NCBI GenBank assembly: GCA_947498785.1
Contig: CANMLS010000006.1
Span: 1-64,000 of the forward strand
From: an uncultured Aquimarina sp.
Lineage (GTDB): Bacteria; Bacteroidota; Bacteroidia; Flavobacteriales; Flavobacteriaceae
DNA length: 64,000 nucleotides
Reading direction: 5' to 3'
Position 1 is the first letter of the stretch, and the number at the start of each line of letters is the position of its first letter. The notes under the pieces are model-generated. The model saw only the letters and a program-made list of their open reading frames with translations. It was not told the origin of the DNA and made no database searches. The position numbers and the translations under genes were made by a program. This document shows, in pieces, positions 53,631-59,376 of this stretch.

Positions 53631-54560
53631 CTATTTATCCTCTAAAAATCGAATGTTTCTAAGTAATCCAGAGAACTTAGTTCTTTTTACCGCTGATTTT
53701 TGAAAGACTTTTGAGAATACTTCCTGAGTGATTTCTTCCCAATCTTTTTTGGTCATTTCTAACAATTCTGGTTTTGGATTAAACAAAGGTTCGCTATGAG
53801 GTTTAGAAAAGCGATTCCAAGGACATACATCCTGACATATATCACAACCAAACATCCAATCGTCAAATTTCTCTTTAAAACCATTAGGAATTTCTTCTTT
53901 TAACTCTATAGTAAAATAAGAAATACATTTACTTCCATCCACTACATATGGTTCTACTATAGCTTGAGTTGGACATGCATCTATACAAGCAGTACATGTT
54001 CCACAATGATCAGTAACTGGGGTATCATATTCTAGCTGGAGGTCGACTATTAGTTCGGCAATAAAATAAAAAGAACCAACTTGTTGAGTAAGTAGGTTAC
54101 TATTTTTACCTATCCATCCCAAACCACTTTTTGCAGCCCAGGCTTTATCCAAAACTGGAGCTGAATCGACAAAAGCACGCCCAGAGACATCTCCAATTTC
54201 TTCCTGAATAAAATACAACAGCTGTTTTAGTTTATCTTTAATTACAAAATGATAATCGGTACCATAAGCGTATTTAGATATTTTGGGAGCATTAGAGTCT
54301 TTTTGCGTTTCTGAAGGATAATAATTAAGTAGTAATGAAATTACGCTTTTGGATCCTTCGACTAGTTTTGTAGGGTCTAGACGTTTATCAAAATGATTTT
54401 CCATATACTTCATTTCGCCGTGCATATTCTGATTAAGCCATTTTTCTAATCGTGGCGCTTCATCTTCGAGAAATTCAGCTTTACTGATACCACATGACAA
54501 AAACCCCAGACGTTTTGCCTCTGCTTTGATCAATTGGGTATGTTTGATTTTAGAACTCAA
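53631..54560 (-). CDS. queG: Epoxyqueuosine reductase
   Basis: A 309-residue cobalamin- and Fe-S-dependent enzyme that reduces epoxyqueuosine to queuosine in the wobble base of certain tRNAs. The catalytic Asp region is [21 protein letters not shown] (Asp132). Two [4Fe-4S] clusters are indicated by [12 protein letters not shown] (Cys186, 189, 192, 196) and by Cys212 with [11 protein letters not shown] (Cys239, 242, 246). The length is normal for bacteria that lack the HEAT-repeat extension. It is transcribed on its own, divergent from the sigma-like gene. Confidence 0.96.
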
Positions 54561-54723: not shown

Positions 54724-55473
54724 ATGAACTTACCCCTTATCCATATTTTAAACAACAATAGTCCAAAAGAAATAAGCCGATTGTATTTTTCCTATAAAAA
54801 AGCTTTTCTAAATTTTGGCAAGAAACATAAAGTAGAAACTGATCTTGTTATCGACATTTATAAAGAAGCATTTGTTGAATTACGAAAACATAGCATACAA
54901 GGAAAACTAGATCAAATCAAAGGTTCATTTAAGCCTTATCTATTTGGAATTGGAAAAACCATGTTATCTAATCACCAAAAAGGTGATACTTCTTCTGAGA
55001 TACAATATTCATCTCCTGATAACAAATTTTTGGAAATTGAATTGGATGCTCCCATCGCATTATCCAAAGAACAAAAAACATTGTATCAATTTTTTGGCAC
55101 ACTCGGAGAACGCTGTCAGGAAATATTGATATTATTCTATTATAGAGGTCTTGCCATCGAAGAAATTGCTGATAGACCAGGATATGAAAATATCACTGTG
55201 GTAAAAAACAAAAAATCACTTTGTATACAACAACTCAAAAATCTGAATTCAGATGTAGGGAATGAAATTGAATTTCGAACTAACCTTAAAAGAATAACTG
55301 AGGATCATGATTCGCAAAATTTTCGATTATTACTTTCTGACTTAGAATCTAAAGGTCCTATCCACGAAAAGAGAAAAAAGAAAATAAAATGGTGGCATGT
55401 ACTAGCTTTAATTTTTGTCATTATTGCATTTGTATACTTTTTAAAATACTATACAAGTATCTTTAATAAATGA
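54724..55473 (+). CDS. Sigma-70-like protein with a C-terminal membrane helix
   Basis: A 249-residue protein. Residues about 15-85 resemble sigma region 2 (SYKKAFLNFGKKHKVETDLV, IDIYKEAF, KPYLFGIGKTML), and about 119-175 region 4 with a helix-turn-helix: LGERCQEILILFYYRGLAIEEIA followed by VVKNKKSLCIQQLKNL. A charged linker then leads to KIKWWHVLALIFVIIAFVYFLKYY, a single membrane helix (about 224-243) with a short tail. Region 2 is weakly conserved, so the sigma assignment is moderate. Tethering to the membrane suggests release by proteolysis, but no anti-sigma or protease gene is adjacent. It stands alone, convergent with the P450 gene. Confidence 0.7.
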   Translation: MNLPLIHILNNNSPKEISRLYFSYKKAFLNFGKKHKVETDLVIDIYKEAFVELRKHSIQGKLDQIKGSFKPYLFGIGKTMLSNHQKGDTSSEIQYSSPDNKFLEIELDAPIALSKEQKTLYQFFGTLGERCQEILILFYYRGLAIEEIADRPGYENITVVKNKKSLCIQQLKNLNSDVGNEIEFRTNLKRITEDHDSQNFRLLLSDLESKGPIHEKRKKKIKWWHVLALIFVIIAFVYFLKYYTSIFNK

Positions 55474-55494: not shown

Positions 55495-56823
55495 TTATCT
55501 GGAAGTAAAGGTTAATGGAGCATTCATTGGTTTTAATGTAATCAAAGGTTTTACTTCAATACTATGTAGGTCGGTTTGAATTTTATATTCCTTGATCACA
55601 CTGCTTATGGTAAGAATCATTTCATACATCGCAAAATTATTACCTATACACATTCTTGGTCCTAAACCAAAAGGGAAATATTGATCAGAATACTCTTTTT
55701 TATCAACTTCTGGATTAAATCGTTCTGGATTAAACTTTTCTGGGTCTTGCCAAAAATTCATATGTCTGTGTATTTCAAAAAAAGAAATAAGTACGGTAGT
55801 TCCTTTTTTAAGAATAAGATCATTGTATCTGTCATCTTCTATGGCAACTCTATCAGAAAAATATGCAGGAGGGTATAATCGCATTGCTTCTTCAATACAT
55901 TGTTTTGTATATTGATACTCTGTAATCTGTTCTATTGGCGATTTGTTTTCTTTAATTCCAGAAACTTCTTTGTATATTTTTTCTTGAACCTCAGGGTGTT
56001 TTGCAAGCAACAATAATGTAAATGTTAGTGCATTAGAAGTAGTTTCATGGCCCGCAGTAAATAATATCAGAATCTCATCAATTAATTGTTCATTACCCAT
56101 AGCAGTTCCATCCTCGTATCGAGATGCTAACAACATATCTAATAGATCATTGTATTCTACATTAGACGCTCTTCTTTCTTCAATAATGATGTTCAGAATA
56201 TCTCTGGATTCTCTTGTTAGCGTAAGGGTATCTTTAACTTTTCCTGTAAGATAAAACCACCATCGTTTATACGGTTGTCTTATTTCTTTGATTAGAAATT
56301 GCTGTGCTGCTTCTGTTATATGTTGCAACCTAGAAATAGTCTCTCCTTTATCTGTATAACTAAACAATGATTTTGCAACTACCTTAAAAGCTAAATCACT
56401 CATTAAGTGAAAAATATCAGCTTTCTTGTTAGGTTCTATTTTTAAAAGTTCTTCTTTAATTACTGAGGTAATAGTATGAATTAAAGATTCTAATTTCTTC
56501 TTATGAAAAGCAGGTTGGATAAGTCTTCTTTGTTTTAACCATTTTTCACCTTCAGCAGTTAATAGTCCTTCTCCAATATACTTAGCAAGATCTTTGGTTT
56601 GTAGTGAAGACTTACTATACTTTCTATGTTGCTTCTGTAGCATATGTTTAGCAAACCTTGCATCTCTAGTAAAAATTACAGATTCCCCAAAGCCCAATTG
56701 CACTTTAAATATATCTCCATATTTTTCAAAGTTTTCATGATGAAAAGGAAGTGGATTCTTAAGAATACGACGTGCATTATTAAGTACATTAAAAAATGAA
56801 ACTGTTGGGATAGCTTTACTCAT
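55495..56823 (-). CDS. Cytochrome P450
   Basis: A 442-residue soluble P450. The oxygen-binding helix I motif is AGHETT (257-262), the ExxR motif is EAMR (312-315), and the heme-binding loop is FPFGLGPRMCIG with ligand Cys392. The start region (SFFNVLNNARRILKNPLPF, YGDIFKVQLG) resembles CYP4/CYP102-type fatty acid hydroxylases. It would insert oxygen into a hydrophobic substrate using electrons from a partner, yet no ferredoxin or reductase gene is near. It lies 28 bases after the KAP NTPase gene on the same strand and is convergent with the sigma-like gene. Confidence 0.94.
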   Translation of the reverse strand: MSKAIPTVSFFNVLNNARRILKNPLPFHHENFEKYGDIFKVQLGFGESVIFTRDARFAKHMLQKQHRKYSKSSLQTKDLAKYIGEGLLTAEGEKWLKQRRLIQPAFHKKKLESLIHTITSVIKEELLKIEPNKKADIFHLMSDLAFKVVAKSLFSYTDKGETISRLQHITEAAQQFLIKEIRQPYKRWWFYLTGKVKDTLTLTRESRDILNIIIEERRASNVEYNDLLDMLLASRYEDGTAMGNEQLIDEILILFTAGHETTSNALTFTLLLLAKHPEVQEKIYKEVSGIKENKSPIEQITEYQYTKQCIEEAMRLYPPAYFSDRVAIEDDRYNDLILKKGTTVLISFFEIHRHMNFWQDPEKFNPERFNPEVDKKEYSDQYFPFGLGPRMCIGNNFAMYEMILTISSVIKEYKIQTDLHSIEVKPLITLKPMNAPLTFTSR

Positions 56824-56851
56824 AACTAAAGTATTTCATATGAAATAACGA

Positions 56852-58339
56852 TTATTTTAAGTAATCCAGATAAGCCTTAGTCCCTTCCTCTAATATCGAA
56901 AAATAATTCAATCTAATCTTTTCTTTTTCAACTTTATTGACATGACCATTTCTAGTTACATTTTTGCAATCTAATGCTCGTGAATAGTTATTTTTTATAA
57001 TATCGCATTCAAAATTTAAATCATCCAATGAAAGTCTTATTGATGTTTTATCATCTTCTGAGGTTCTTCCTGAAAACTTGATAATATCCATTAACCATAT
57101 AATTTCACATATTTTATTCAAATTACTTTTATCATATGAATCATAATTAAAATGAAACTCTTTCTTAGATGCTTTATTTAAGGTTTTTAAAAACTCATTA
57201 TTGTTATTAAAAAAACTAATAAAAAAATTAAGTACACTTTCTATATTTATATTATATCTCTGTAAATAAACATTTTCTTGCCTTTGATTTTGTAGTTTAA
57301 CCCTAGAAAAATAATTTAAATCATAAGTTTTATTATAATTAACCAAATCTCTTAAATTAATAAGGTCATAATCTATTAATTGTAATAGAATAAATCTAAT
57401 ATGAATCCCTATTCTACGATCAACTGAAAAAAAGTCATCTATTCCTGTTTTAATTTCTCCTAAATATTTACCTATTATTTCTTTCACTAGCTTAGAAATA
57501 CTATACCAATAAATACCAGTATAAAACTTATCTATATACCCTTTAAAATCTGAATTAACACCATATTTATGGGAAAAAACATTCTCTATGTTATTATAAT
57601 CGCAGACAAAAACTACTTTATCAAAATCAAATTTATTATCACCCTCTGCCCCAGCAAAATCATTATGCGCAGAAAAAACATTCAAAATTCTAAAAAGATG
57701 ATCTGGGTCTAACCTATCTAGGTCATCTATAACAAGAACAACCTCTTTACCTTCATCTTTTTTAACCTTTGATAATAATACTCGAATTAATTCTGTAAAA
57801 AAATCTTCCTCATAAAGATGTCCTTTTTTTGTGGTAGCATCTTCTAAATACTTTTTTATACATAAAAAGTCATCTTTTTGAATTTGTTCATAAAAATCCT
57901 CATAGCCTTTTATTAAGCTTTTAATTTGCTGATAAATTTTTAAGCCAGTACTTCCAAACTTTGGGATAAAGTTCAAAAAAGATGCAAAAAAATCCCCTTT
58001 TTTCTCTAAATCTTTAAAACTGAGTAAATACGTCCATAAAGTTAGTTGATAAGGAATATCTAACTTTTCAAATTCTTCTTTTGGTACTATTCCAATTAAC
58101 TGAAACAAAATATCATACTTAATCAGTTCAAAAATATCCTGATTCGAAACAGTAGAATAATTTACTGGATAAATATGAATACCACTATAATTAGTGTTAT
58201 CATTAAAAAAATCCTTTAGAAAAGTGGTTTTTCCGCTTCCGAATACTCCGGAAAATAAAATTTTAGAATTTTCATTAACTACACTATTAAAATCCTCAAA
58301 AGGAATTTCTATCTTATCCAAAGTCTCTTTATCTTTCAT
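56852..58339 (-). CDS. KAP-family P-loop NTPase
   Basis: A 495-residue protein with Walker A GVFGSGKTT (31-39) and the KAP-type Walker B VLVIDDLDRLDPDHLFRIL (201-219), with Asp205/Asp206 for magnesium. The region between holds amphipathic and aromatic helices (LTLWTYLLSFKDLEKKGDFF, FIPKFGSTGLKIYQQI). The C-terminal half is helical and Asn/Lys/Tyr-rich. KAP NTPases often associate with membranes and several occur in anti-phage or plasmid exclusion systems. The gene starts 14 bases after ruvB and looks richer in A/T than its neighbours. The function here is unknown; a defence role is possible but unsupported by other genes. Confidence 0.85.
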   Translation of the reverse strand: MKDKETLDKIEIPFEDFNSVVNENSKILFSGVFGSGKTTFLKDFFNDNTNYSGIHIYPVNYSTVSNQDIFELIKYDILFQLIGIVPKEEFEKLDIPYQLTLWTYLLSFKDLEKKGDFFASFLNFIPKFGSTGLKIYQQIKSLIKGYEDFYEQIQKDDFLCIKKYLEDATTKKGHLYEEDFFTELIRVLLSKVKKDEGKEVVLVIDDLDRLDPDHLFRILNVFSAHNDFAGAEGDNKFDFDKVVFVCDYNNIENVFSHKYGVNSDFKGYIDKFYTGIYWYSISKLVKEIIGKYLGEIKTGIDDFFSVDRRIGIHIRFILLQLIDYDLINLRDLVNYNKTYDLNYFSRVKLQNQRQENVYLQRYNINIESVLNFFISFFNNNNEFLKTLNKASKKEFHFNYDSYDKSNLNKICEIIWLMDIIKFSGRTSEDDKTSIRLSLDDLNFECDIIKNNYSRALDCKNVTRNGHVNKVEKEKIRLNYFSILEEGTKAYLDYLK

Positions 58340-58353
58340 ATATAACCCTTCTT

Positions 58354-59376
58354 TTAAAACAATCCACCTTGAATTCCGCCTTTTATACGTCCCAGATGCT
58401 TATATGCTGCTTCTGTAACTTCTCTACCTCGTGGAGTACGCATGATAAATCCTTGTTGAATTAAAAAAGGTTCGTATACTTCTTCAATAGTCTCTGCACT
58501 TTCGCTAACCGCAGTAGCAATAGTTGTTAATCCCACAGGACCTCCTTTAAACTTATCGATCATGGTCGTTAGGATTTTATTATCCATCTCATCCAAGCCA
58601 TGTGCATCTACATTAAGTGCTTTTAGAGCAAACTTAGAAATTTCGATATCAATTTTACCATTTCCTTTAATTTGGGCAAAATCACGAACCCTACGCAATA
58701 AAGCATTTGCAATTCTAGGCGTACCGCGACTTCTTCCTGCAATCTCTATAGCTGCTTCCATAGAAATAGGCACATTAAGGATATGGGCACTTCTTTCTAC
58801 TATAGTTGATAATAATTCTGTAGTATAATATTGTAATCGAGATTGAATTCCGAAACGAGCTCTCATGGGAGCGGTTAGCAATCCGGATCGTGTTGTTGCA
58901 CCTACTAGTGTAAATGGATTGAGATTAATCTGTACAGTTCTGGCGTTTGGACCACTTTCGATCATAATATCGATCTTATAGTCCTCCATAGCAGAATATA
59001 AATACTCCTCTACTATGGGACTCAATCTATGAATTTCATCTATAAATAATACATCCCTATCATCAAGATTAGTTAGTAATCCAGCTAAGTCACCTGGTTT
59101 ATCTAATACAGGTCCTGATGTTACTTTAATCCCAACGCTTAACTCATTTGCCAAAATATGCGCTAAGGTGGTCTTCCCTAAACCCGGAGGACCATGAAAC
59201 AAAGTATGATCCAAAGCTTCATCTCTAAGGTTTGCTGCTTGCACAAAAACTTTAAGGTTTTCTAATACCTGATCCTGCCCTGCAAAATCTTCAAAAGCTA
59301 GTGGTCTTAACGCTCTTTCAATATCAAGGTCTTCTCCAGAAAAATGCTCGTTTGTTGGATCAAGGTTTTCATTCAT
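58354..59376 (-). CDS. ruvB: Holliday junction branch migration ATPase RuvB
   Basis: A 340-residue AAA+ motor that drives branch migration with RuvA. Seen are the start [18 protein letters not shown], Walker [10 protein letters not shown] (62-70), Walker B with DEIHRL (113-118), sensor and arginine-finger region [19 protein letters not shown], and the C-terminal winged helix ending [17 protein letters not shown]. The length is normal. The KAP NTPase gene follows 14 bases downstream, so it may be read through from ruvB. A terminator separates ruvB from coxA upstream. Confidence 0.97.

What the first reader, a model, noticed from the sequence alone, without database searches (positions are those of the whole stretch)
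56852..58339. KAP NTPase gene set into the ruvB-P450 interval
A 495-residue KAP P-loop NTPase lies 14 bases after ruvB and 28 before the P450 gene, in a stretch of otherwise typical flavobacterial core order. The gene appears more A/T-rich with many Asn, Lys, Tyr and Ile codons. KAP proteins are recurrent in phage-exclusion contexts. A single-gene insertion behind a DNA-repair gene would give it ready expression.
Basis: partly seen in the sequence, partly recalled or inferred. Interest (0 to 1): 0.5.

Follow-up and report, generated by a model that had tools for sequence, protein, structure and literature searches.

The report
Sporadic KAP NTPase in ruvB operon
A flavobacterium carries, squeezed between two housekeeping genes, an extra ATP-driven protein of a family linked to defence against viruses; some distant relatives keep a related gene at this same spot while nearly all close relatives lack it.

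Summary
The gene is real: 495 codons, 14 bp after ruvB and 28 bp before a P450 gene, Pfam KAP_NTPase (38.4 bits, cut-off 20). It has the lowest GC of 47 long ORFs in the window (25.1%), but through amino-acid content: synonymous codon choice is ordinary, and four relatives beside ruvB are as AT-rich in their own hosts, so recent import is not shown. None of 31 same-genus genomes with a readable ruvB has it there; RhTr2 (L003), inside the genus on my tree, does. The four closest homologues found (45-50% identical) all lie in the ruvB-queG interval and form one clade with it (99/100); carriers are scattered on a RuvB+QueG tree. The interval also holds unrelated genes. Of 12 more distant homologues, 7 lie in type I restriction loci, viral contigs or helicase/NACHT islands. 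Best reading: a soluble, locus-bound KAP subfamily of anti-phage defence, made with RuvB, kept or lost sporadically. Defence is inferred, not shown. New member of a known kind, modest interest.

The parts
56852..58339 (-). KAP-family P-loop NTPase gene, 495 aa
   Evidence: ORF; Pfam PF07693 1.1e-9, 38.4 bits, cut-off 20
58226..58249 (-). Walker A motif GVFGSGKT (residues 31-38)
   Evidence: F33, G34, G36, K37, T38 invariant in 7 aligned homologues; motif name recalled
57704..57736 (-). Walker B region LVIDDLDRLDP (residues 202-212)
   Evidence: L202, D205-R209, D211, P212 invariant in 7 aligned homologues; motif name recalled
56855..57319 (-). C-terminal region, residues 341-495, fast diverging, no Pfam match
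   Evidence: 12-33% identity to six homologues against 47-71% for residues 1-95; no Pfam family listed there
58340..58353 (-). 14-bp ruvB-KAP gap
   Evidence: sequence
56824..56851 (-). 28-bp KAP-P450 gap
   Evidence: sequence
58354..59376 (-). ruvB, upstream neighbour and one anchor of the variable interval
   Evidence: Pfam RuvB_N 1.3e-75
55495..56823 (-). cytochrome P450 gene, itself present or absent in relatives
   Evidence: Pfam p450 3.4e-83; presence and absence
53631..54560 (-). queG-like gene, other anchor of the variable interval
   Evidence: match in 363 of 397 family genomes at E<=1e-40; the name queG is recalled from the sequence, no family search was run on it

Best explanation
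The gene codes for a soluble KAP-family P-loop NTPase of a subfamily tied to the ruvB-queG interval of Flavobacteriaceae. It most likely serves in anti-phage defence: transcribed behind ruvB (inferred from the 14-bp gap), the conserved NTPase engine (residues 1-340) would assemble with ATP, and the fast-diverging C-terminal part would sense a phage product or act on the cell to stop the infection. Shown: family, motifs, locus, scattered occurrence, one clade, company of the distant homologues. Inferred: defence, co-transcription, oligomerisation, what is sensed and how the infection is stopped.
For: KAP domain and invariant Walker residues in 7 homologues. No stretch hydrophobic enough for a membrane helix (best 19-residue mean 1.18). 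7 of 12 homologues outside ruvB-queG have defence-type or viral company: in Aequorivita viscosa between hsdM-RhuM and hsdS-AAA_15 genes; in G359 after hsdM-hsdS-hsdR-YgjP genes; on three viral contigs with head or integrase genes; near NACHT, DUF2971 and helicase genes on a Segatella plasmid; near a helicase with a weak nuclease match in G656. Scattered occurrence. One broken copy (L004/G193). Subfamily members match PADLOC candidate PDC-S20 (best 2.4e-10). Print: KAP proteins said to confer phage immunity and often to decay (PMC3995785, passages); Tmn is a KAP NTPase defence system (PMC11846954, one passage); QatA, a predicted KAP NTPase of qatABCD, binds DNA and appears to form 7- or 8-mers (PMC13279940, passages). 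Fold comparison lists RdrA of the RADAR defence system first among AAA+/NLR-type ATPases, on a model of modest confidence.
Against: The five copies beside ruvB are not in a defence island; nine kinds of other interval cargo run against Pfam and PADLOC are mostly metabolic, transport or regulatory genes. The window protein itself matches PADLOC models only weakly (PifA 0.0024 over 28 residues, mad8 0.013, PDC-S20 0.033), and the best PDC-S20 match, G642, lies among ordinary genes. 5 of 12 other homologues have no clear defence company: G008 beside a C39-peptidase exporter, G642 and Prevotella nigrescens among ordinary genes, G086 split over two contig ends and G699 on a 3-kb contig. No control count of how often random accessory genes lie in such settings. 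QatA was not needed for all qatABCD defence. Model pLDDT 64.6, pTM 0.51; RdrA TM-scores only 0.18-0.32.
Confidence: 0.6

Rival explanations
1. Ancient operon member: the KAP gene entered the ruvB-queG interval once in an ancestor of these flavobacteria and has been lost in most lineages. (Concerns history; compatible with a defence role.)
For: All 5 clade members are in the interval. The KAP branch {L002, G140, L004} against the rest (97/98) agrees with the identities of the flanking CoxA proteins (92-93% among L002, G140, L004; 91% window-L003; 84-87% across), and window+L003 as a clade is not rejected (p-AU 0.306). L003 falls inside the window's genus on the RuvB+QueG tree and keeps the ruvB-KAP-P450 order.
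Against: Needs very many losses: 3 of 397 family genomes carry it there and 0 of 31 same-genus genomes. KAP sits before P450 in the window and L003 but after it in L004/G193, so at least one further move. RuvB and QueG identities do not show the CoxA grouping, the RuvB+QueG tree sets G140 apart from L002 and L004 (weakly, 82/81), and the best KAP tree joins the window to {L002, G140, L004} rather than to L003 (87/89).
Confidence: 0.4
2. Repeated transfer between flavobacteria through recombination in the conserved flanks ruvB and queG, which would place the same gene in the same interval again and again. (Concerns history; compatible with a defence role.)
For: Carriers are scattered (5 changes, at least 4 forced) while the KAPs form one clade; KAP position differs relative to P450; the interval is filled by many kinds of gene; no insertion mark was seen at the junctions.
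Against: No recombination junction could be read; the copies are only 39-59% identical, so no recent transfer was seen.
Confidence: 0.5
3. Housekeeping or accessory role linked to RuvB or queuosine (QueG), not defence.
For: Same two anchors in five species; co-directional with ruvB and queG in 5 of 5; QatA, also a predicted KAP NTPase, is encoded with a QueC-family protein (PMC13279940, passages).
Against: Absent from nearly all sampled genomes that have ruvB (393 of 397) and queG (363 of 397); relatives sit in restriction loci and viral contigs.
Confidence: 0.15

Closest known systems
KAP family P-loop NTPases (Pfam PF07693)
   Same: P-loop domain over residues 26-332, Walker motifs
   Different: distinct C-terminal region without a Pfam match
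PADLOC candidate PDC-S20
   Same: G642, L005 and G359 homologues match over part of the NTPase domain (2.4e-10, 4.1e-8, 1.4e-6)
   Different: window protein only 0.033, over about 100 residues
Tmn
   Same: KAP-family NTPase in defence (PMC11846954, one passage)
   Different: Tmn has two transmembrane domains; this protein has no candidate membrane helix
PifA
   Same: weak match around Walker B (0.0024, 28 residues)
   Different: PADLOC profile is 720 long; no further stretch matched
QatA of qatABCD
   Different: no qatB, qatC or qatD beside it; no QatA match listed for the window protein up to E 1 (G642 matches at 0.018)
RdrA of RADAR
   Same: first in the fold comparison (Z 11.9, rmsd 6.0, 243 aligned)
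   Different: RdrA chains there are about 780-850 residues; similar Z for other AAA+ and NLR-type ATPases, model of modest confidence; neighbours here are ruvB and P450

Membership tests
KAP NTPase family (PF07693) | Score above Pfam gathering cut-off | tested here: met
   38.4 bits, cut-off 20; 7 of 7 aligned members match the family at E<=0.001
KAP NTPase family (PF07693) | Walker A and Walker B with DDLDR-type signature (signature recalled) | tested here: met
   invariant in 7 of 7
Tmn | Two transmembrane domains in the KAP protein | tested here: not met
   highest 19-residue hydropathy mean 1.18
PifA | Full-length match to the PifA profile | tested here: not met
   28 of 720 profile positions, E 0.0024
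PDC-S20 | Match to PADLOC PDC-S20 profiles | tested here: inconclusive
   window protein 0.033; relatives down to 2.4e-10
qatABCD | Operon with QatB, QatC (QueC-like), QatD | tested here: not met
   neighbours are ruvB, P450 and a queG-like gene
RADAR RdrA | RdrA fold | tested here: inconclusive
   top of the list but tied with other ATPases, on a modest model
RADAR RdrA | Adenosine deaminase partner rdrB beside it (feature recalled) | tested here: not met
   neighbours are ruvB and P450
Anti-phage defence gene | Protection against phage | not testable with these tools
   needs plaque assays

The most novel reading that the evidence does not exclude
The gene is a guard of recombination: held in the ruvB operon, this KAP subfamily watches RuvB or Holliday-junction processing and fires when a phage disturbs it, which would explain why only this clade sits beside ruvB.
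Probability: 0.07. Interest if true: 0.65.

Novelty: new member of a known kind. Interest (0 to 1): 0.35.

Why it matters
It shows a defence-type gene kept outside any visible defence island, in one fixed housekeeping interval of several flavobacteria, and lost or never gained in their close relatives. If defence is confirmed, such operon-embedded solo genes would be missed by island-based searches, and one family of them could be looked for at a known address.

Tried and rejected
Recent foreign origin from base composition: rejected as evidence, because the low GC is carried by amino-acid content and recurs in L002, L003 and G140 (KAP 22-23%, ruvB 35-36%) and in L004 (KAP pieces 25-26%, ruvB 35%).

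Att sites, repeats or mobile genes at the junctions: the spacers after ruvB in the genus loci printed are short or unalike and give no insertion mark by eye; no repeat finder was run.

A ruvB-queG defence hotspot: not supported. Ten cargo proteins (nine kinds of gene, one an ABC pair) out of 148 unlabelled ORFs collected were run against Pfam and PADLOC: amidohydrolase, M1 peptidase, GH16-like, TPR-CHAT, AraC-type regulator, di-haem peroxidase, ABC transporter pair, MscS-like, FAD oxidase. PADLOC matches at E<=1e-4 came only for the ABC ATPase (several generic ATPase models, best mad3 7.3e-31) and TPR models for the TPR-CHAT protein; the latter could still belong to a conflict system. The loci were mostly picked for long intervals, so they do not measure how common cargo is.

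No match among 50,697 phage records; two plasmid records; no PDB sequence match with the A1 profile up to E 1; NCBIfam nothing above cut-off; PHROGs only weak matches. Two further viral scans returned only the query contigs. G096 and G223 (E about 1e-3) are short marginal matches and were left out of the homologue counts; G086, split over two contigs, was left out of the tree. L126 (G381) was fetched and not studied. The genus of Tamlana could not be searched.

Searches for print: ruvB + queG + Flavobacteri, 0 papers; KAP searches. PMC9122126 (passages) says nothing of KAP; PMC10907252 (one passage) names KAP NTPases among putative antigen sensors.

The trees cannot tell old presence with loss from repeated transfer.

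Full report
WHAT IS THERE. The gene at 56852-58339 (minus strand) is an intact 495-codon ORF, 14 bp behind ruvB and 28 bp before a cytochrome P450 gene, all in one direction. Pfam gives KAP_NTPase over residues 26-332 at 38.4 bits (cut-off 20) and confirms RuvB and P450 on either side. Walker A (GVFGSGKT, 31-38) and Walker B (LVIDDLDRLDP, 202-212) carry residues invariant in seven aligned homologues. No 19-residue stretch has a mean hydropathy above 1.18, so the protein should be soluble. Against six homologues residues 1-95 are 47-71% and residues 176-340 41-57% identical, residues 341-495 only 12-33%.

COMPOSITION. Among 47 ORFs of 150 aa or more in the window it has the lowest GC (25.1%; mean of the others 33.3, sd 2.3) and the highest share of Phe/Tyr/Met/Ile/Asn/Lys (43%). 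Its synonymous codon choice is the closest of the 47 to the window's usage. In L002, L003 and G140 the neighbouring ruvB has 35-36% GC and the KAP gene 22-23% (25-26% in L004), so low GC is a trait of this gene family and not a trace of a recent move (all).

DISTRIBUTION. Of 32 other genomes of the genus one (G008) has a homologue, on another contig than its ruvB; a 33rd genome, G232, has none. ruvB could be read in 31 of these 33 (G021 partial, G031 none) and none has KAP beside it. In one search, 23 of 29 such loci have P450 next after ruvB; of the other six, G028 has queG there, G015, G030 and G001 have a 670-aa amidohydrolase-family gene in the very slot and then P450, G032 has a 419-aa gene on the other strand, and G005 has neither P450 nor queG within 17 kb. 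G007 is like G005, and G232 has the amidohydrolase relative (family, tested on the G015 copy). In a sample of 397 family genomes 7 match at E<=0.001, two of them marginally (G096, G223); of the five good ones three (window, G140, G193) lie between ruvB and queG and two (G086, G359) elsewhere. In 296 genomes of the order a profile finds 3 at 1e-10: the window, G642 and G656. Among 218 relatives of G140 only G140, G086 and the marginal G096 match, and in the genus of G193 two of three match. These samples overlap, and the large ones score only the first few candidates per genome.

ONE CLADE, ONE INTERVAL. A scan of the species-genome collection with short peptide patterns of the window protein, which reaches close relatives only, found four relatives. 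Three of them (Tamlana laminarinivorans L002, 'Flavobacteriaceae bacterium RhTr2' L003, a MAG L004 whose contig has the length of the G193 contig and is counted once with it) lie, like G140, between ruvB and queG: ruvB-KAP-queG (L002, G140), ruvB-KAP-P450-queG (window, L003), ruvB-P450-KAP-queG (L004/G193, broken into frames of 131 and 378 codons). On a tree of 16 KAP proteins these five form one clade with support 99/100 and the other eleven fall outside. On a RuvB+QueG tree of 63 loci the five carriers need 5 changes (at least 4 forced), no fewer than shuffled labels give (mean 4.9); L003 falls inside the window's genus, next to G008.

LOSS OR TRANSFER. The KAP branch {L002, G140, L004} agrees with identities of the flanking CoxA proteins, and window+L003 as a clade is not rejected (p-AU 0.306), though the best tree joins the window to the other three (87/89); RuvB and QueG identities do not show the same grouping, and the RuvB+QueG tree sets G140 weakly apart. 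A single old entry with many losses and repeated entry through the conserved flanks both remain open; the KAP/P450 order difference asks for at least one extra event. The interval itself is variable: in 62 fetched loci with both anchors, many picked because it is long, it runs from 28 bases to 17.9 kb. Ten cargo proteins run against Pfam are an amidohydrolase, an M1 peptidase, a GH16-like protein, a TPR-CHAT protein, an AraC-type regulator, a di-haem peroxidase, an ABC transporter pair, an MscS-like protein and an FAD oxidase.

COMPANY OF THE DISTANT HOMOLOGUES. Twelve homologues outside ruvB-queG were looked at. Aequorivita viscosa (L005): hsdM, RhuM-family gene, KAP, hsdS, AAA_15 gene. G359: hsdM, hsdS, hsdR, YgjP-like, KAP. 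Three viral contigs: L113 with a major head protein, L114 with virion structural genes, L115 with an integrase and a head-protease-like gene. Segatella copri plasmid: NACHT, DUF2971 and helicase genes within a few kb. G656: a helicase with a sub-threshold nuclease match about 2 kb away; three nearer ORFs match nothing. Against the trend: G008 beside a C39-peptidase exporter, G642 and Prevotella nigrescens among ordinary genes, G086 and G699 uninformative. That is 7 of 12; no background rate was measured.

FUNCTION. In print, KAP proteins are tied to phage immunity and frequent decay (PMC3995785, passages); Tmn is a KAP-family NTPase defence system with two membrane domains (PMC11846954, one passage); [quoted passage not shown] QatA of qatABCD is a predicted KAP NTPase that binds DNA and seems to form heptamers or octamers, yet is not needed against all phages (PMC13279940, passages). 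The predicted structure (pLDDT 64.6, pTM 0.51, seven sequences) compares best with RdrA of RADAR (Z 11.9, TM-scores low), closely followed by other AAA+ and NLR-type ATPases; this supports the ATPase class and no more. My reading is a soluble sensor-type ATPase of anti-phage defence, made along with RuvB. Expression with ruvB, oligomerisation, the trigger and the outcome are inferred.

VERDICT. Real, correctly placed, and of somewhat more interest than a one-off insertion, because one KAP clade recurs in one interval across flavobacteria. Still a new member of a known kind, with function inferred.

Noticed in passing
54724-55473 (+): 249-aa ORF running against queG and P450, with a sub-threshold sigma-70 region 4 match (E 0.008). 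In G001, G002, G016, G027, G030 and G232 a relative lies in the ruvB-queG interval within a shared cargo block beside a gene of 1018-1025 aa, which is a TPR-CHAT protein in G001; a sigma-like gene beside TPR-CHAT deserves a look.
   Followed up: partly
L053, L054, L055, L072 (ruvB-P450 gap): An amidohydrolase-family gene of about 670 aa occupies the exact slot of KAP in four genus-mates.
   Followed up: partly
G000:C1:323925-325799 (L129, L131): Second KAP-type gene of the own genome, 1134-aa open frame with two KAP_NTPase segments (one partial translation).
   Followed up: partly
L004 6013-7471: KAP copy beside ruvB broken into two frames; decay or sequencing error.
   Followed up: no
L078, L094, L096, L112: The same ABC transporter pair (392 and 251 aa, on the strand opposite to ruvB) lies between P450 and queG in four flavobacteria.
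   Followed up: partly
L049 8672-9146: Two small ORFs that look like leader-bearing peptides (by eye) between a C39-type exporter and the KAP gene of G008.
   Followed up: no
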